Shown here: in pieces, positions 35,640 through 64,000 of the stretch
Numbering within the stretch: position 1 is the first letter of the stretch
How the letters are laid out: every line of letters begins with the position of its first letter
From: Siphonodentalium dalli
Lineage: Eukaryota; Mollusca; Scaphopoda; Gadilida; Siphonodentaliidae
Reading direction: 5' to 3'
NCBI GenBank assembly: GCA_032622095.1
Contig: CP136064.1
Span: forward strand, 127,957,605 to 128,021,604
DNA: 64,000 bases
Notes under the pieces: model-generated
The model's input: only the letters and a program-made list of their open reading frames with translations
Told to the model about the DNA's origin: nothing
Database searches by the model: none
Program-made: the position numbers and the translations under genes

Positions 35640-35785
35640 GCTGACTGCCGTTCGGCCGCGGTGTACTTGCCGTTCGGCCGGGGTGTACTTGTCGTTCGGC
35701 CGCGGTGTAGTTGCCGTTCAGCCGCGGTGTACTTGCCGTTCGACCGCGGTGTACTTGCCGTTCGACCGCGGTGTACTTGCCGTTC
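35640..35785. repeat. 22-bp CpG-rich satellite, array 1
   Basis: About six units of TTCGGCCGCGGTGTACTTGC plus CG. Because 22 is not a multiple of 3 and no unit has stops, five frames stay open; these are not genes. Confidence 0.95.
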
Positions 35786-39204: not shown

Positions 39205-39405
39205 CGGTGTACATGCCGTTCGGCCGCGGTGTACTTGCCATTTGGCCACGGTGTACTTGCCGTTCGGACGCGGTGTACTTGCCGATCGGCCGCGGTGTAC
39301 TTGCCGTTCGGCCGCGGTGTACTTGCCGTTCGGCCGCGGTGCTCAACCGCGGTTACACAAAGTGACACCGCGGCCGAACGGCAAGTACACCGCGGTGGCA
39401 GTGGA
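39205..39405. repeat. 22-bp CpG-rich satellite, array 2, with inverted unit
   Basis: About seven units of the same 22-mer as array 1, then one unit in the opposite direction (CCGAACGGCAAGTACACCGC). GTGGACACTTG..TTTTGTCCAGCGGG follows, the inverse of the flank of array 1. Confidence 0.95.
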
Positions 39406-58000: not shown

Positions 58001-61000
58001 CCAAGTAGTCCATGTCCAGGTCACCTTTTCACATTTAACCCAAGGCTGTGGTGGTGCAGCATTACAGATCCTGTACCAGTGCATTCTCTTTTATAAATGC
58101 GAGTGACCCATAAATTCCATTATGTGATCACTCAGATCCAAGAGACACTACCCCCACCAGTGACAGCCCTGCCACTACTGCATTGATTGTGTATGAACTA
58201 CAGGGAAAAACACTCTTATCACATGGAATATTTAAACGACAACACATGAGTGGGGTATGATCTCAGCTTTAATGCAACATTATAAGCTTGTCCTGCAGAT
58301 AGCCCATACGCATGGAAACCAATTAAGCAGAGCCTTAGCTCTGACGAGAAGCCGAAGCAGAGAACGCTGAAGAAATACTTCTGTACAGCGCAGGCATGAG
58401 CATGGCCCGACGAGCAATGTACGATTCGGAGCCGGCGCCCAAGAATTGCTATGAGGCGCCCTAAGCAATAAGCACACACGGCCAACAGGGAGAAGCCCAA
58501 CGAGTGCGACGCAGGAATGGCAGTAGAGACCACTGGACAGCCCAACTCCCTATGGCTAAGCAACAGCGATGGGCGGGTAACACCACAGTTACCCCTGCAG
58601 GACGCACCAAAGCTGGATCAATGGCACTGATAACACAGCACCTGAAAGTGAAAACAAACAGCAGCAACGAGATTTAAACAAACAGGGCCATAGGCCCAAA
58701 ACAAAACAGGCATCACATAACAATGAAGATGGCGTGCCACTTCGGGACGCCGAACAAAGCGGGGCATGGAGCTCCAAGGGGGAGGGAGGGAGCGCGATAC
58801 GTATAATTCCAAAGTGACTTGCTTTTTCCGATACCGGAAGGAGGCAGCATTTCGGGCGGATTTAAAATGCGGACTTTAAGTTCGGCCGATACGGAACGGA
58901 TCGTACCGAAAAACCGGAATGTCTGCCAGATGACAGGATCAAAGAACCACATAAATCACCCAGAACCTTATCGGCCCTGGGTGCATTATGTGATCACTCA
59001 GATCCAAGAGACACTACCCCCACCAGTGACAGCCCTGCCACTACTGCATTGATTGTGTATGCACTACAGGGAAAAACACTCTTATCACATGGAATATTTA
59101 AATGACAACACATGAGTGGGGTATGATCTCAGCTTTAATGCAACATTATAAGCTTGTCCTGCAGATAGCCCATACGCATGGAAACCAATTAAGCAGAGCC
59201 TTAGCTCTGACGAGAAGCCGAAGCAGAGAACGCTGAAGAAATACTTCTGTACAGCGCAGGCATGAGCATGGCCCGACGAGCAAGGTACGATTCGGAGCCA
59301 GCGCCCAAGAATTGCTACGAGGCGCCCTAAGCAATAAGCACACACGGCCAACAGGGAGAAGCCCAACGAGTGCGACGCAGGAATGGCAGTAGAGACCACT
59401 GGACAGCCCAACTCCCTATGGCTAAGCAACGGCCTGGAATATTACACTCAGGCTACAGTTCGAGAGCACTCTCGAATAAGCATAAGATGACTGCGCAGTC
59501 ATAAACATACTGAGCTACTATTGATAAGCCACCCATCAAAGTTACCAGACAGGTGATAACGCTATGGCGACACTACCACTACCAATATCTGCAGGACCGC
59601 CATAGAGTGCGCAGCACTCCCCCAAACCAGGAGCTCCATGCCCAATGACATCAATGAAACAGTTAAACCACCGGGAAAACCATAGTGTCAGATGCCAGGA
59701 AGGTCCCCAGGGCGCCCTGGAGACTATTCAGGTAGAGAGCGTTGCCGACGGGGGAGAGATGGATCCCATCTGAGGTTGCCGAACCTGGGGCGTCATGACC
59801 AGCAGCCAAATGTTAGGGTCGATGGTCTCCCAAGGAGTAGCAGTATTCCCAACCCACTTCAACCGAAATTGGGTATCGTACACCCGCCAGGCAGATCCCC
59901 CACATTTAGCAGCCGCTCAACGAATTGTGCGCAGGTAACGCAAAAGGGGCTGGGCCGACGATTCAGGGTGAACGTCGAGGTACACCGAAACGAAAGTGAG
60001 AAAAGCATCGGTCCACGAGTCAACAGACGTTATTGGAGCAGCATGCCCGCTTGGCGCAACGCGGATTCGCCCGGAAGCAGAGACAACCAACTGACGGGGG
60101 TCAGCTGTATGAATAGATGAGGCGGGTTCCTGCAGTTGATCCAAATTGATAAAATCGCCCCGGAAAATTTTTATCGCGAATAGACCGGGAAATGTGAGAG
60201 CCAAAACCGTCTGCCGCCGTAGGAATCGGCAAGGGGGCGTCCCAATGGGAGACCAGTGAGGATGGTAAGCTAAATAAGGGATTACCCGGATCAGTTCTGT
60301 CTCTTGCCGGAGCGTTCGGTCGGTGTATCACCGAAGCCACACGGGAATCCTCGCGGCGGCAGAGAGAAGTGGAGCTGTCGTCGGAACTGCTGCGTCGACG
60401 TGGCAACAAAGGAGACGCTGATGGTGACCTGGATTCATAGCGCGGAAACTTGGGGCGCGGAGAACCATCCTGTCGGTGACGAGACTGACGACTGGGCTGA
60501 CGACGAGGCTGACGAACAGGATCGCGGCCGCGTGAATGTGAAACCCGGCCACGGGAGGCGCGGCATCCCCGGCCAGAGCTACGGGCAGGCCTGCTGCGCG
60601 AATGCTGTCCATGGCCACGCACCCGTGAATCAGCCACAGATGACACACTTGCCGAAACCCGAGAAGAAGGCCTAACACGGTCACTGGAAGCAGGACCAGC
60701 ACGAGACGAACTGGCAGATGCATCCTGTCGACTGCTACGAGACGAACGGGCGCGGGCCCGACCGCGAGATCCCGTACGAACCATATGAGAACTTTTTTTT
60801 TTTTTAGTGCCACCGAACGACAAACACTGAAACAGGGAAACACGTGCGCGACCCACGAAAATAGGTAACGCCGACGGAACAGCACGCAGACAGAACGCAC
60901 AAGGAACAAGATGATAGACGAATAAATGAAGGCTGGTGAAGAAACACGGTGACGGATGGAAACAGATAGGAATTGACGACACACAACCGAGCGTGATACA

Positions 61001-64000
61001 TATAATTCCAAAGTGACTTGCTGTTTCCGTTACCGGAAGGAGGCAGCATTCCGGGCGGATTTAAAATGCGGACTTTAAGTTTCGGCCGATACGGAACGGA
61101 TCGTACCGAAAAACCGGAATGTCTGCCGGATGACAGGATCAAAGAACCACATAAATCACCCCGAACCTTATCGGCCCTGGGTGCAATAAGTTCTGTACAT
61201 TTGTCTATAATAGTACATGTATAACAGTATACTCTATAATTCAACATAAAAACTCTCATTTATGATTCCGATCATAGTAATTTACTATCGCCAAGGGATG
61301 GGTTAGCATCTGCCGATCGTGATCGGCCTCTCGTTGCCTATTATTTCAATATTTGTAGGGACATGATAATAAAGTTAATACCTCCTGATAGCATATACTC
61401 CACTCTTTCCAAACATATATGATAATTTTTCAGTAGGGTACATTTACAAATAGTCTTACCATACATAGCTGCCACCAATTCCGCCAAGGCCAGGAATCTG
61501 TTTTTCTTTCAATGAATTTGTTTTTGTTTTTGCAGAGAGCCACCTGTAAATATTGCTCAGACAGAATCTGGGGTCTCGGTCGACAGGGATATAAATGTAT
61601 ACAGTGTAAATTACTGGTGCATCGGAAATGTCACAAACTCATTAAAATAACTTGTGGCGGGCATGTAAGTATCAAATTAGTCAGTTTTGTCCATCTTAGC
61701 TTCTATTGTATATTGTGATGTAGTACATTTTTAATTATATTTTAGATATATATATTCTCTTTCCAGTTATTTTATAAAGTCTGTCCATGACTTTAGAAGG
61801 ACACTATCAATTAAGTGTCTTTTTCCCCTCTCTCTGTGAATTATGTAATGAAGCGATTGAAATTATACCGAAGTGCGTGATTGTACAAGGTGCCTAAATT
61901 CATGAAATTATACTGACATTGATGGATATGGAATAGAAGTGATTTTCTTCCAATTATAATCGTATATGAATATGATGCATGTATTTATTCTCTTTGTTTT
62001 TTTTATATTAAAAACTGATCTCCTTTTTCAGGAATCTCCCACAAATTCTACATATTCAAATGATAGCACTGCCACAGAGAGTCCAAGCAACTCAAGATGT
62101 GAGTAGTTACAGTGGTCTTAAAAGACCAATGGTCTCTTTTATCAGTTCCTTTTGAATATGGGTGCTTGGATGCCAGGAAACTGGTCTCTTTCCAGCAGTT
62201 CTTTGCTTCAGTATAATGCCATGTACAAAATGATAGGGTGTGACTGATTCCAAAAATAAAAAAATATTTGGCAAAGATGAAAACTACTGTTAATAGTTCT
62301 GCCCAACAAAATATATGGTAGATTTCAGTACACAGGAGTCACTATTGCCTCCAGTCAATAGTGTCAAACGATTCTGTGATATATTGTGGAGCTCCGTGGT
62401 CCAGTGGTTAGAGCGTCGGACTTGTCTTCGCTGTCAACACATCGAGATGAATTCGCAGCCCGCCACTGGTCTAATGTTGTGAGTTTCACACAGCAGTGGC
62501 TTGACCGAATTGATCGATGTGCAATTGACGGGATTGTACACTGTTCAAATCTCGTGGCAAGTTGTGACCCTTATGCTGGCAAGCCTTGAAATAGTGTGTC
62601 TGTCATTTGCAGAATGAGGTCCCCAGAGGGTGAATTTAGTGATGGACCTCATTCTGATTACAACTCAGCAGAATGAGGTTCCCAGAGGGTGAATTTGGTG
62701 ATGCTAGCCCACTATGCGGGGTAGCATCACTAAATTCAACCTCTGGGGACCTCATTCTGCAAATGACAGGAACACTATTTCAAGGCTTGTATGCTGGTAT
62801 GATTGTACTCACATTTTTATGTCACTGTGTATGCGAATCTGGAGGCTGATTTGGTGTCTATCTCGAATCCGATTATCAATATCGACATCGAAGTCAATTT
62901 ATATCTTGGGTGGGTGTGTGATGATTACTGCAATTTGAGCCAACATGTATGGTACAGTATAGTAATTCTACCTTTACATTCAATTATTGATTTTGTATAT
63001 TCCATATTTTACAGCAGGATCTCCACGAAGGAACATTATAATTGAAGCAGGAAAAGAGGTACGTTAAAAATACCTGGAAATTAAAGTGATAAAATTTATT
63101 TGCCAGTTTTAATGAGATATTAGTACTGTACCAACTTACCGTGTCATTTCGACAGACAAATTGTATAGTATCTACAGTCATTTGTCATTGTTCAACCCAG
63201 ATCCAACATGATTGAGTGGGACACTTATTATTAGAATATATGTGATATATCTGCTTGAGTAATGCAACATGAGCTAGTATTGTTGAAAAATTTAGTTCCA
63301 TATTTTGCATAACTTTATAAAAAATATGTCCACGAACTACACAGATGTGTGAAAGTAGAAGCTTGGCTAGTTTGTTGAACTTTACAAATCTTCCGGACAA
63401 CTTGAGAAATAGAAATAAAAAATTTGGAATAATGTCATTTAACAGTTTTCAAAATGTGTTTGTTATACCTAAGCACAGTGAAAATTTCATGGAATAACAT
63501 CTGAGTAATATTTCCTCTTTAAAGGATGACTCTGATACAGACCAGGAGTATACCGAGGTATTATAACACGTGGTTATTGCTTCATTTTAGTTTGTGCTGA
63601 ATGTCCTGTACTGTTGGTCATGAATTACTCCACTATGATGTGTTGTATCAAGCTGTATTTTGTCTGGTTTTCCTTTCCTTCTCATCCAAAAAGCATAATT
63701 TATCAATTTACATATTTACATTTTTCTATATAGAATTTTGTGAAGGAATTGACCTGTACCTGATAACCCTTTGCCTGATTAGGGTGTTGTTGGTTCTTAT
63801 TATCCTGTCCTTTAATGCATTTGAGAAATTCTCATATATGTTTTTTGTCTAACTTTGAAGATTCTGAAAGTAAGCATGTTTTCTCGTAATTCTGGATTTT
63901 TACTGCATCACTTTGTCTTCTTTTCCTTTGTACATAATTTGTTTACATAAAAAATATTGCTAAAATGAAGATACCTTATAATGCATTTGTCATTTTTCAT
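45967..64000 (+). CDS. aPKC: Atypical protein kinase C, 5' part of gene (9 exons, residues 1-227; continues past window)
   Basis: aPKC is the Ser/Thr kinase of the Par3-Par6-aPKC cell-polarity complex at the apical cortex. The splice model gives a PB1 domain (about 12-95) that would bind Par6 or p62, with Lys15 and the acidic OPCA segment KWVDEEGDP (55-63). Next come [12 protein letters not shown] (96-107), the pseudosubstrate [12 protein letters not shown] (111-122, Ala115 in the phospho-acceptor place), and one C1 finger (127-176) with exact H-X12-C-X2-C-X13-C-X2-C-X4-H-X2-C-X7-C spacing. A Ser/Thr/Asp-rich hinge follows. The single C1, the PB1 and the absence of a C2 domain separate aPKC from other PKCs. 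Coding exons: 45978-46036, 48832-48953, 49432-49521, 49674-49724, 51547-51632, 61536-61664, 62032-62098, 63015-63058, 63525-63557. The kinase domain is not in the window. A single gene covering vertebrate iota and zeta is expected in invertebrates. Confidence 0.93.
46258..46377. repeat. Long hairpin (aPKC intron 1)
   Basis: TGGCATGCCATAATAAGAA plus TTTTTCC and AAGTTCGTTCTTTA pair with TAAAGAAAGAACTT and TCTTATTATGGCATGCCA. Loop is minimal; likely a foldback MITE. ATAT-rich flanks give no clear target duplication. Confidence 0.75.
46640..47770 (-). pseudogene. Unrecognised decayed coding-like block, antisense in aPKC intron 1
   Basis: Consecutive minus-strand frames with higher GC look protein-like but are interrupted: 47112-47396 (94 codons, with [19 protein letters not shown] and an acidic [10 protein letters not shown]), 46814-47008 ([20 protein letters not shown]) and 47448-47747 (Cys-rich). 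Shifts between frames and stops suggest a degenerate gene or mobile-element ORF rather than an intact one. No family was recognised. Confidence 0.3.
47771..48831. other. aPKC intron 1, 3' part; nothing supported
   Basis: A minus-strand frame at 48092-48283 includes a hydrophobic segment [19 protein letters not shown], but it has no partner exon. Confidence 0.3.
48832..48953 (+). CDS. aPKC: aPKC exon: PB1 middle
   Basis: One hundred and twenty-two bases, finishing Gly20 and encoding residues 21-60 plus one base of Gly61. It contains [19 protein letters not shown], matching the aPKC PB1 core. The acceptor is TTCTAG and the donor is G|GTAATT. Confidence 0.93.
49432..49521 (+). CDS. aPKC: aPKC exon: PB1 OPCA segment
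   Basis: Ninety bases, finishing Gly61 and encoding residues 62-90 plus one base of Val91. It contains [20 protein letters not shown], the acidic OPCA part and following helix of the PB1 domain. The donor is G|GTGAGT. Confidence 0.95.
49674..49724 (+). CDS. aPKC: aPKC exon: PB1 end and [12 protein letters not shown]
   Basis: A 51-base exon, residues 91-107 plus one base of Arg108. [13 protein letters not shown] is an invariant aPKC linker as recalled from vertebrate iota and zeta. The acceptor is ATTGCAG and the donor is A|GTAAGT. Only 152 bases separate it from the previous exon. Confidence 0.94.
49755..50299. repeat. aPKC intron 4: third copy of the AAATGTTCA-ATAAGTTCAACAA repeat, then plain intron
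   Basis: 49755-49830 matches 8190-8255 and 8995-9075. The remainder shows nothing recognisable. Confidence 0.5.
50304..51136. mobile_element. TTAA-flanked element (piggyBac-like), copy 2 (aPKC intron 4)
   Basis: TTAA at 50300-50303 and 51137-51140. Ends CTCTTTTACTGCCG and CGGAAGCGAAAGAG. Interior homology to 41532-42263 (AAGATGGCCACCAATGTCAC and TGAAGTTTCAACAC). Confidence 0.75.
51547..51632 (+). CDS. aPKC: aPKC exon: pseudosubstrate and start of C1
   Basis: Eighty-six bases, residues 108-136. [12 protein letters not shown] is the autoinhibitory pseudosubstrate. [11 protein letters not shown] starts the C1 domain with zinc ligand His127. The donor is CGG|GTAAGT, and 32 bases into the intron there is a run of 25 C. 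Confidence 0.96.
51665..51689 (+). repeat. Run of 25 C, 32 bases after a 5' splice site
   Basis: An uninterrupted C homopolymer at the start of aPKC intron 5. Confidence 0.95.
51690..52854. other. aPKC intron 5, 5' part; nothing supported
   Basis: Short frames without recognisable features. Confidence 0.4.
52855..53965. mobile_element. hAT-type non-autonomous element (1,111 bp)
   Basis: A perfect 8-bp duplication ATTACTTG (52847-52854, 53966-53973) flanks TAGAGATGGGCGGTACTCGG and the inverted TACCGCCCTTCTCTA. Many GGTACCG / ACCGGTA / CGGTAAAT motifs sit near both ends, as is usual for hAT subterminal regions. No transposase. Fragments of the same family lie at 28620-28796 and 36985-37300. 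Confidence 0.9.
54590..55480. repeat. Three tandem units of about 350 bp
   Basis: TGCCATCTTGGATTTTGAT-like lines recur at about 54629, 54972 and 55337, with CATTACACTT/CATATGTCC and TAATGGTGA lines between. Confidence 0.7.
55485..55990. repeat. Repeat family H, copy 2 (AGCTCACCTGAGACGAAGTC)
   Basis: It begins TTTAGCTCACCTGAGACGAA and CGTCCGTCCGTCAACAATTC. Two internal copies follow of ACTGGGCCTATTTAGCTTAG and GATTCAGATTTGTTCAAATG. Confidence 0.75.
56332..56467. mobile_element. piggyBac-type MITE, copy 3 (degenerate)
   Basis: TTAA at 56328-56331 and 56468-56471. CATTTCATGACCAG end and a single hairpin with GTGCATTCTCTTATATATG and AAAGAGAATGCACTGG. Confidence 0.6.
56590..57330. repeat. Repeat family H, copy 3
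   Basis: AGCTCACCTGAGACGAATC, then GGGGTCACCTGGTCAACTAG to AGTAGTGTACAGTTGGTAAT and CAGTCTTATCAGTC, the close match of 37690-38735. It is preceded by a run of 12 G. Confidence 0.75.
57340..57700. repeat. ATGTTTACCATA palindrome repeat with A-rich tract
   Basis: GTTTACCCATACCATAGTAT then GGTAAACATAGTG, a family B-like body (TTTGATCCGAC, GAGTTATGGTCC) and A(n)/TAAA(n) runs to 57700. Confidence 0.6.
58039..58118. mobile_element. piggyBac-type MITE, copy 4, truncated
   Basis: TTAA at 58035-58038, then GGTGGTGCAGCATTACAG and CCAGTGCATTCTCTTTTATA as in copy 1. It breaks off at the edge of the split-repeat retroelement. Confidence 0.65.
58119..58567 (-). repeat. Split direct repeat B2 (3' terminus)
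   Basis: Shares TTATGTGATCACTCAGATCC through ATGGCTAAGCAAC with B1. Each copy holds the same 114-codon minus-strand frame, which is a by-product of the duplication and not evidence of a protein. Confidence 0.9.
58797..58983 (-). repeat. Split direct repeat A2
   Basis: Copy of 60995-61185; both carry (plus strand) TACCGGAAGGAGGCAGCAT, GGCGGATTTAAAATGCGGAC and TTATCGGCCCTGGGTGCA. Confidence 0.9.
58984..59432 (-). repeat. Split direct repeat B1
   Basis: Near-identical to B2 at 58119-58567 and contiguous with A2. Just inside it are palindromes TGACTGCGCAGTCA and TCGAGAGTGCTCTCGA (59455-59500). Confidence 0.9.
59728..60784 (-). pseudogene. Gag-like ORF of the DIRS-type element, frameshifted and with a stop
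   Basis: The frame opening at the Met at 60784 (or upstream at 60982) encodes a long Ser/Arg-rich, basic, disordered region. A +1 shift at an A-run (plus-strand TTTTT, 60168-60172) moves the protein to the next frame. There it continues with [20 protein letters not shown] and [17 protein letters not shown], the W-T-x-A-F..Y..HP..L..Y..IR core that I recall from gag-like proteins of tyrosine-recombinase retroelements. An in-frame TGA at 59917-59919 interrupts it before [12 protein letters not shown] and [12 protein letters not shown], and it ends at 59728. Three separate similarity blocks in one order support one decayed gene. Confidence 0.7.
60995..61185 (-). repeat. Split direct repeat A1 (5' terminus)
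   Basis: Outer end of the element; its last shared bases are GGCCCTGGGTGCA on the plus strand. The same point in A2 runs directly into B1. Confidence 0.9.
61285..61340. repeat. Inverted second copy of the CGATCGTGATCG repeat
   Basis: ATCTGCCGATCGTGATCGGC and flanking bases are the reverse complement of 1338-1400 with few differences over about 50 bases. Confidence 0.7.
61536..61664 (+). CDS. aPKC: aPKC exon: C1 zinc finger
   Basis: One hundred and twenty-nine bases, 43 codons, residues 137-179, phase 0 at both ends. It holds seven of the eight C1 zinc ligands: Cys140, 143, 157, 160, His165, Cys168 and 176. [13 protein letters not shown] is typical of the atypical C1, which does not respond to diacylglycerol. 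The acceptor is TTTTGCAG and the donor is CAT|GTAAGT. Confidence 0.96.
62032..62098 (+). CDS. aPKC: aPKC exon: Ser/Thr-rich hinge
   Basis: Sixty-seven bases encoding residues 180-201 plus one base. It has a good acceptor (CTTTTTCAG) and donor (T|GTGAGT) and joins in frame on both sides. Composition is Ser, Thr and Asn rich with no recognisable motif. This hinge is poorly conserved between species, so the support is splice logic rather than similarity. Confidence 0.75.
62383..62579 (+). repeat. tRNA-derived SINE fragment
   Basis: GCTCCGTGGTCCAGTGGTTA followed by GAGCGTCGGACTTG matches a Pol III A box (TGGTCCAGTGG) and tRNA head. A weak B box (AATTCGCAGCC) lies about 50 bases later. It lacks a foldable acceptor stem, so it is not a tRNA gene. 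Its 3' part is cut by the hAT MITE at 62580. Confidence 0.7.
62580..62789. mobile_element. hAT-type MITE, copy 2 (210 bp), inserted in or beside a SINE
   Basis: CAAGCCTTGAAATAGTG and CACTATTTCAAGGCTTG are perfect inverted ends flanked by perfect 8-bp duplications TATGCTGG (62572-62579, 62790-62797). Same hairpin interior (GCAGAATGAGG..CCCAGAGGGTGAATTT) as copy 1 at 9692-10116. Confidence 0.92.
63015..63058 (+). CDS. aPKC: aPKC exon: hinge (SGSPRR)
   Basis: A 44-base exon, residues 202-216. Using the first AG of the ACAGCAG acceptor keeps the frame open; using the second would create an immediate TGA. The donor is GAG|GTACGT. It encodes [15 protein letters not shown], which includes a possible proline-directed or basophilic phosphosite. 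Confidence 0.7.
63525..63557 (+). CDS. aPKC: aPKC exon: acidic hinge (small)
   Basis: A 33-base in-frame exon, residues 217-227 ([11 protein letters not shown]), between CTTTAAAG and GAG|GTATTA. The donor is weaker than the others in this gene. The acidic stretch resembles the region just before the kinase domain in aPKCs. It could be cassette-spliced because it is phase 0 at both ends. Confidence 0.6.
63558..64000. other. aPKC intron (incomplete); nothing else seen
   Basis: No further hinge or kinase-domain exon is recognisable before the window ends. Confidence 0.5.

What the first reader, a model, noticed from the sequence alone, without database searches (positions are those of the whole stretch)
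58119..61185. Split-direct-repeat (PAT/Ngaro-like) retroelement with its polymerase and recombinase genes missing
Seen: two different repeat pairs interleave as A1 - ORF - B1A2 - B2, with B1 and A2 contiguous. Known: this arrangement is diagnostic of PAT/Ngaro members of the DIRS order. Inferred: the element keeps both repeat sets and part of gag but has lost RT, RNase H and recombinase. The low divergence between repeat copies implies recent activity, which would require mobilisation in trans by a full-length relative. A non-autonomous split-repeat element of this compact size (3.07 kb), with a 229-bp spacer between A2 and B2, may be undescribed.
Basis: partly seen in the sequence, partly recalled or inferred. 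Interest (0 to 1): 0.78.

Follow-up and report, generated by a model that had tools for sequence, protein, structure and literature searches.

The report
Gutted Ngaro jumping gene, mobilised in trans
A 3-kb jumping gene that lost its copying and insertion enzymes has still spread across this animal's chromosomes, evidently by borrowing them from complete relatives, and one branch of it is a patchwork of the gutted and complete versions that records how these poorly understood elements copy themselves.

Summary
On the minus strand the element (58123-61185) reads a1 - gag - b1/a2 - 225-bp spacer - b2, the split-direct-repeat layout. It is a Ngaro-type element: long relatives of about 6.2 kb in the same genome share these repeats and carry a gag zinc knuckle, RT/RNase H, tyrosine recombinase (YR) and an SGNH-like ORF. 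The 3-kb form is one internal deletion of about 3.2 kb. Its exact joint occurs at 53 places on all nine contigs (control 0); the intact gag continuation occurs at 128. Of 45 readable 5' ends, 36 follow TAA. For the two copies tested, the joined flanks exist uninterrupted elsewhere, so insertion was precise, without target duplication. The deleted form therefore moved repeatedly with borrowed enzymes. Six of the 31 joint-bearing copies sampled (group D2) are mosaics: ends from the long family, middle with the deletion from the main 3-kb group. The breakpoint inside b1 recurs at the same place in b2 in 5 of 5 complete D2 copies. Best reading: deleted and long RNAs recombined during shared reverse transcription, and b2 is regenerated from b1. 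Short split-repeat derivatives are known in kind (SIRE); this Ngaro case and its recombination record did not turn up in my literature searches.

The parts
61186..61188 (-). 5' flanking triplet on the coding strand (TAT here, TAA in most copies); target side
   Evidence: 36 of 45 readable 5' ends have TAA, 6 TAT (window and L008 are one insertion)
   Evidence: direct repeat with 58790-58985
59774..60784 (-). truncated gag, broken in this copy (frameshift and stop), zinc knuckle missing
   Evidence: aligned to gag of long relatives L027, L031
59772..59773 (-). deletion joint (2-base TC overlap): gag fused to the last part of the SGNH-like ORF
   Evidence: identical in the window and 10 fetched copies; 53 places genome-wide, control 0
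59431..59771 (-). end of the SGNH-like ORF and sequence up to b1
   Evidence: aligns to L027 and L031 beyond the deletion
58986..59430 (-). b1, internal repeat (plus-strand name A2)
   Evidence: direct repeat with 58120-58564
58986..58988 (-). TAA at the b1/a2 joint, the presumed 3-base circle junction
   Evidence: joint identical in 16 of 16 copies read; role inferred from the DIRS1 model (PMC3266345, passages)
58790..58985 (-). a2, internal repeat (plus-strand name B1)
58565..58789 (-). spacer between a2 and b2, present in long relatives too
58120..58564 (-). b2, 3' terminal repeat (plus-strand name A1), ending in TAA at 58122-58120

Best explanation
The element is a non-autonomous, internally deleted Ngaro-type tyrosine-recombinase retrotransposon. 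SHOWN: one deletion joined gag to the end of the SGNH-like ORF of a long element; copies with that joint lie in different flanks on all nine contigs; insertion was precise and without target duplication in the two copies tested; six copies (D2) are mosaics of long-family and 3-kb sequence; b1 and b2 of one copy change together. INFERRED: the 3-kb RNA is packaged with Gag from long copies, reverse-transcribed by their RT/RNase H, closed to a circle at the b/a joint and inserted by their YR, using the 3-base TAA core. In one such event reverse transcriptase switched long -> 3-kb -> long template, which implies that both RNAs shared a particle, and this founded D2. The terminal b2 is rebuilt from b1 during replication, so the breakpoint inside b1 reappears in b2.
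For: Long relatives L027-L032 with the same repeats; L027 and L031 have open gag, RT/RNase H, YR and SGNH-like frames; Pfam on L027: RVT_1 8.1e-10, Phage_integrase 1.8e-8. Deletion joint at 53 places, control 0; intact gag continuation at 128 places, control 0. TAA before 36 of 45 readable 5' ends against about 2.5% of window positions. Joined flanks of D2 copy L037 and D1 copy L007 are each found uninterrupted at 100% in 2 of 40 scored places. Mosaic: 37 of 37 diagnostic columns (159-834) D2 = long, 22 of 22 (885-1378) D2 = D1, 2 private; opposite trees, p-AU 8.7e-10 and 1.1e-4. Mirrored breakpoint in b1 and b2 in 5 of 5 complete D2 copies. The 41-base segment of b has equal length in b1 and b2 in 20 of 20 copies.
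Against: No transcript, particle or circle was observed. The direct parent of D1 was not found: the nearest long copy read, L030, is 94.8% identical in the gag segment, and a search with its RT DNA gave only 97% matches besides itself (40 of 170 candidates scored). The split point for the two trees was chosen after seeing the columns. D2 is one recombination event, so template switching rests on one case. The second long subfamily (L029, L032) is itself mixed at these columns, so part of the D1-like stretch in b could have come from it; nine events on the 3' side, four of them inside b1, still separate D1/D2 from both long groups.
Confidence: 0.8

Rival explanations
1. D2 arose by host gene conversion between genomic copies, and b1/b2 agreement by conversion within one copy, not by template switching during reverse transcription.
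For: The mosaic alone cannot tell the two apart; only one event is known.
Against: b1 and b2 agree in all 20 copies compared for the 41-base segment and by 0-10 differences overall, which fits copying at each insertion better than sporadic conversion. The parent copies would have to lie at unlinked places.
Confidence: 0.2
2. The truncated gag of the 3-kb form is still a working gene, useful in cis or interfering with the long family.
For: Open to the joint in 12 of 24 D1 and 6 of 6 D2 copies, against 9 of 18 long copies. D1 stem changes 6 N: 12 S, p 5e-4 against neutral, though part of that stem may predate the deletion.
Against: Changes shared within D1 (17 N: 11 S) do not differ clearly from singletons (99: 31), p 0.10, whereas the long family differs (6: 15 against 41: 13, p 4e-4) (tests). 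D2 changes are 7 N: 0 S. The zinc knuckle is lost.
Confidence: 0.2
3. The 3-kb copies are decayed remnants or products of DNA-level (segmental) duplication, not a mobile family.
For: The window copy itself has a segmental duplicate 192.5 kb away: L008, flanks 386 of 386 identical.
Against: Other copies have their own flanks, mostly after TAA; two empty sites; 53 places with one joint.
Confidence: 0.03

Closest known systems
Ngaro-like elements DIRS-53_XT / DIRS-54_XT of Xenopus (PMC9210276, passages read)
   Same: Split direct repeats A1-ORFs-B1A2-B2, RT/RH, YR, an SGNH ORF after YR, no MT domain.
   Different: Those are autonomous families with 236- and 152-bp repeats in DIRS-53_XT; the window element lacks all enzymes and has repeats of about 197 and 445 bp with a 225-bp spacer. 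No sequence comparison was possible.
SIRE, the short form of VIPER in Trypanosoma cruzi (PMC6681497, PMC12278014, passages read)
   Same: A short non-autonomous relative of a split-repeat YR retrotransposon.
   Different: SIRE corresponds to the A2-B2 region only and its mobility is left open there; the window family keeps a1, gag part, b1/a2 and b2, and its mobility is supported by empty sites.
TOC1 of Chlamydomonas (recalled; a search found no paper)
   Same: As I recall, a split-repeat element without its own RT and YR.
   Different: PAT-related, alga; details not checked.
Non-autonomous LTR retrotransposons with an autonomous partner, e.g. Dasheng/RIRE2 (title seen in a reference list; details recalled)
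   Same: Deleted derivative amplified by an autonomous partner.
   Different: LTR/integrase elements; here split repeats and a tyrosine recombinase.

Membership tests
Ngaro-like YR retrotransposons | split direct repeats, internal pair 3' of the coding region | tested here: met
Ngaro-like YR retrotransposons | RT/RNase H and YR encoded | tested here: met
   Met in long relatives (L027: RVT_1, Phage_integrase; motifs in L027, L030, L031); RVT_3 below its cut-off. Absent from the window element itself, which is filed as a deletion derivative.
Ngaro-like YR retrotransposons | no methyltransferase domain | tested here: inconclusive
   no MT match at E<=0.1 in the L027 proteins and the YR frame overlaps the RT/RH frame; Pfam could miss a divergent MT
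Ngaro-like YR retrotransposons | SGNH ORF after YR (amphibian Ngaro) | tested here: met
   Lipase_GDSL_2 1e-5, below the curated cut-off; LGSND and DGIHL motifs (motif reading recalled)
Ngaro-like YR retrotransposons | RT places within the Ngaro clade | not testable with these tools
   no eukaryotic reference RT sequences on hand
DIRS order, integration | precise insertion without target duplication at a 3-base core | tested here: met
   model quoted in PMC3266345
DIRS1-like | inverted terminal repeats with internal complementary region | tested here: not met
   the repeats are direct; the inverted pairs found in the window are short and do not join the element ends
PAT-like | MT domain between RH and YR | tested here: inconclusive
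   none found by Pfam in L027
SIRE-like short forms | limited to the A2-B2 region | tested here: not met
   a1, gag part and b1 are retained

The most novel reading that the evidence does not exclude
The D2 copies are a natural experiment on Ngaro replication: two different genomic RNAs of a tyrosine-recombinase retrotransposon were copied together with template switching; the 3' terminal repeat b2 is rebuilt from the internal b1 in the cycle; and the integrating circle carries one TAA that ends on the 3' side while the target's own triplet stays on the 5' side.
Probability: 0.65. Interest if true: 0.65.

Novelty: new variant of a known kind. Interest (0 to 1): 0.5.

Why it matters
How Ngaro and PAT elements replicate rests, as I recall, largely on models read from their repeats. 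A deleted form that moves shows that the repeats, the spacer and the retained 5' and 3' parts are enough in cis. The mosaic branch offers sequence evidence for co-packaging, template switching and repeat regeneration, which can be tested further in genomes with many copies. It also warns annotators that split-repeat elements without RT or YR genes can be mobile families.

Tried and rejected
The 7.3-kb copy first taken for a full-length relative (L007) is a 3-kb copy with a nested non-LTR element. Ten YR loci (L017-L026), picked from the 150 scored PF00589 hits (1445 candidates), plus L001-L006, have no DNA match to the element at E<=1e-3 and no meaningful gag match (best tblastn E 0.86); the YR of L027 scores 34.8 bits, below every hit listed. 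A tree of the whole gag segment did not settle one or two origins of the deletion (p-AU 0.357); dividing it showed the mosaic. A search with L030 RT DNA for a closer parent gave 97% matches besides itself (40 of 170 candidates scored). My notebook remark that L073's b1 and b2 differ in the 41-base segment was wrong and is corrected. Rows left out of trees: L029, L032, L056, L068, L051, L059, L069 (partial or rearranged), and also WIN as a duplicate of L008. In one search the D2 copy L033 is not counted among the five complete copies because its 3' part ends after b1. An Rfam scan of the window gave nothing. A paper search for TOC1 gave nothing.

Full report
Observation. The coding strand is minus. 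There I call B 'a' and A 'b', so the element reads a1 - gag - b1/a2 - spacer - b2. The b1/a2 joint, GTGATCACA-TAA-TGCACCC, equals the two outer ends joined and is the same in 16 of 16 copies read.

Not alone in the genome. The window lies in an unnamed 2.23-Gb genome of nine contigs. A 20-mer of repeat B has 415 matches (backward control 3), of which the first 100 were listed. Among those 100, 33 same-strand neighbour pairs lie within 9 kb: 1 at 0.87 kb, 6 at 2.06-2.20 kb, 7 at 3.8-5.0 kb and 19 at 5.15-5.43 kb; 34 matches are unpaired and were not examined.

Long relatives. Six widely spaced loci were fetched (L027-L032). All six have the a and b repeats in the same order. L027 and L031 have four open frames on the coding strand: gag with a zinc knuckle (495 aa stop to stop), RT/RNase H (617 aa, with YCDD), YR (329 aa, with R, HxxR, GRW and Y) and an SGNH-like frame (393 aa); the other four have at least one of these frames broken or shortened. 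Pfam on L027: RVT_1 8.1e-10; RVT_3 1.3e-3, below cut-off; Phage_integrase 1.8e-8; Phage_int_SAM_1 6e-7; Lipase_GDSL_2 1e-5, below cut-off; gag no match; no methyltransferase match. The passages of PMC9210276 that I saw describe Ngaro-like elements by split direct repeats, RT/RH and YR, no MT, and in amphibians an SGNH ORF after YR. The meaning of the motifs is recalled.

One deletion. Against L027 the window element lacks L027 1748-4966, about 3.2 kb: everything from a point in gag 28 residues before the zinc knuckle to the last part of the SGNH-like frame. The joint has a 2-base overlap and is identical in the window and ten fetched copies. Genome-wide the 25-base joint occurs at 53 places (40 exact, 13 with one mismatch; control 0), on all nine contigs. 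The intact gag continuation occurs at 128 places (up to 3 mismatches; control 0; 100 listed).

Insertion. Of 55 loci examined, 45 had a readable 5' end; the triplet before it is TAA in 36, TAT in 6, and TTA, CGT, TAG in one each (window and L008 are one insertion). TAA is about 2.5% of window positions. The 3' end was located by a string that includes TAA, so TAA there is not an independent count. For one D2 copy (L037) and one D1 copy (L007) the two flanks were joined without the element. Both joined sequences are found uninterrupted elsewhere in dispersed repeats: at 100% in 2 of 40 scored places each, and at 91-98% (L037) or 99% (L007) in the other 38, all spanning the joint. So the insertion adds the element with one triplet and duplicates nothing. 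In L037 the 5' triplet is the target's CGT while the 3' one is TAA. This agrees with the DIRS1 model quoted in PMC3266345 (passages): recombination between a 3-base circle junction and the genome, without target duplication. These were the only two empty-site searches made.

Two groups of deleted copies. I fetched, whole or in part, 30 of the 52 joint places other than the window. Of these 31 copies 30 entered the tree (L051 dropped), with 18 of the 24 long copies fetched. D1 (24 rows, window and its duplicate L008 included) has mean identity 0.981 in the gag segment, D2 (6 rows) 0.997, D1 to D2 0.958, D2 to the main long family 0.970. The D2 copies share a one-base variant of the joint that 6 of the 53 places show. 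The whole-segment tree left one or two origins open (p-AU 0.357).

The mosaic. Column by column, wherever D2 sides with one of the two, it agrees with the long family at 37 of 37 columns from 159 to 834 and with D1 at 22 of 22 from 885 to 1378; 2 columns are private to D2. Trees of the two parts are opposite, and each rejects the other grouping (p-AU 8.7e-10 and 1.1e-4; the division was chosen after seeing the columns). On the 3' side all six D2 loci were read; L033 ends after b1, leaving five complete. In these five, 54 diagnostic events read D1 x18, long x24, D1 x8, long x4; two copies deviate at two neighbouring columns. The change from D1 to long falls between columns 632 and 652 in b1 and between 1506 and 1526 in b2, 874 apart, which is the distance from b1 to b2. 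So b2 repeats the b1 breakpoint although a2 and the spacer between them are long-type. A D2-private base in b1 is also repeated in b2 in the two copies compared. The second long subfamily (L029, L032) is itself mixed at these columns; nine events on the 3' side, four of them inside b1, still separate D1 and D2 from both long groups. Since the D1-like middle of D2 contains the joint, the deletion arose once.

Repeat agreement. Within one copy b1 and b2 differ by 0-10 bases and a1 and a2 by 0-7 (window 6 of 448 and 7 of 196). A 41-base segment of b, absent from L027-L029, L031, L032 and D2, has equal length in b1 and b2 in 20 of 20 copies compared, small length variants included (window and L008 are one insertion).

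Age. D1 copies differ by about 1.9% in the gag segment, D2 by 0.3%; L016, L027, L031 and two D2 copies have no b1/b2 difference. Activity is recent, D2 most so. No mutation rate is known here, so no dates are given. The window copy has a segmental duplicate 192.5 kb away (L008), with 386 of 386 flank bases identical.

Gag of the short form. It is open to the joint in 12 of 24 D1, 6 of 6 D2 and 9 of 18 long copies. Shared changes are mostly synonymous in the long family (6 N: 15 S) but not clearly so in D1 (17: 11) (Fisher p against singletons 4e-4 and 0.10). Whether truncated Gag does anything stays open.

Novelty. SIRE (PMC6681497, PMC12278014, passages) is a published short form of a split-repeat YR element, so the kind is known. 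Searches for Ngaro with nonautonomous (6 papers; passages of 3 seen) and for Ngaro, non-autonomous, gag, deletion (8 papers, listing only) showed no non-autonomous Ngaro family or recombinants between short and long forms (also listings). Repbase, preprints and most subscription journals were not searched. The neighbouring exon encodes a C1 domain; reading it as an atypical protein kinase C of an animal is recalled, and the species is unknown.

Noticed in passing
window 61536-61664 (+): C1-domain exon (PF00130, 1.4e-13), resembling an atypical protein kinase C by recall, about 350 bases from the element, whose coding strand is opposite.
   Followed up: partly
G000:C4:128208100-128211550 (L008): Segmental duplicate of the window's element and its flanks, 192.5 kb away; 186 of 186 and 200 of 200 flank bases identical.
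   Followed up: partly
L007 3225-7034 (+): A non-LTR retrotransposon (endonuclease and RT frames) nested in a 3-kb copy; identification by eye.
   Followed up: partly
L033 and L074 (G000:C2:37.63 Mb): A D2 copy that ends in TAA and host flank right after b1, without a2, spacer and b2: perhaps recombination between b1 and b2 or use of the internal joint as an end.
   Followed up: no
L029, L032, L056, L068: A long subfamily in which about 97 bases of gag are replaced by some 530 bases.
   Followed up: no
G000:C2:117607159 and 117608025: Two B-repeat matches only 866 bases apart: perhaps a still shorter derivative or a tandem joint.
   Followed up: no
G000:C5:33658045 and 33664863: Two deletion-joint copies 6.8 kb apart on one strand: neighbouring insertions or a local duplication.
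   Followed up: no
G000:C2:39406686, 39409775, 39412864: Three YR frames at 3089-base steps, a tandem array of a YR element.
   Followed up: no
window 35646-35785 and 39205-39341: The same 22-base minisatellite unit in two arrays 3.5 kb apart.
   Followed up: no
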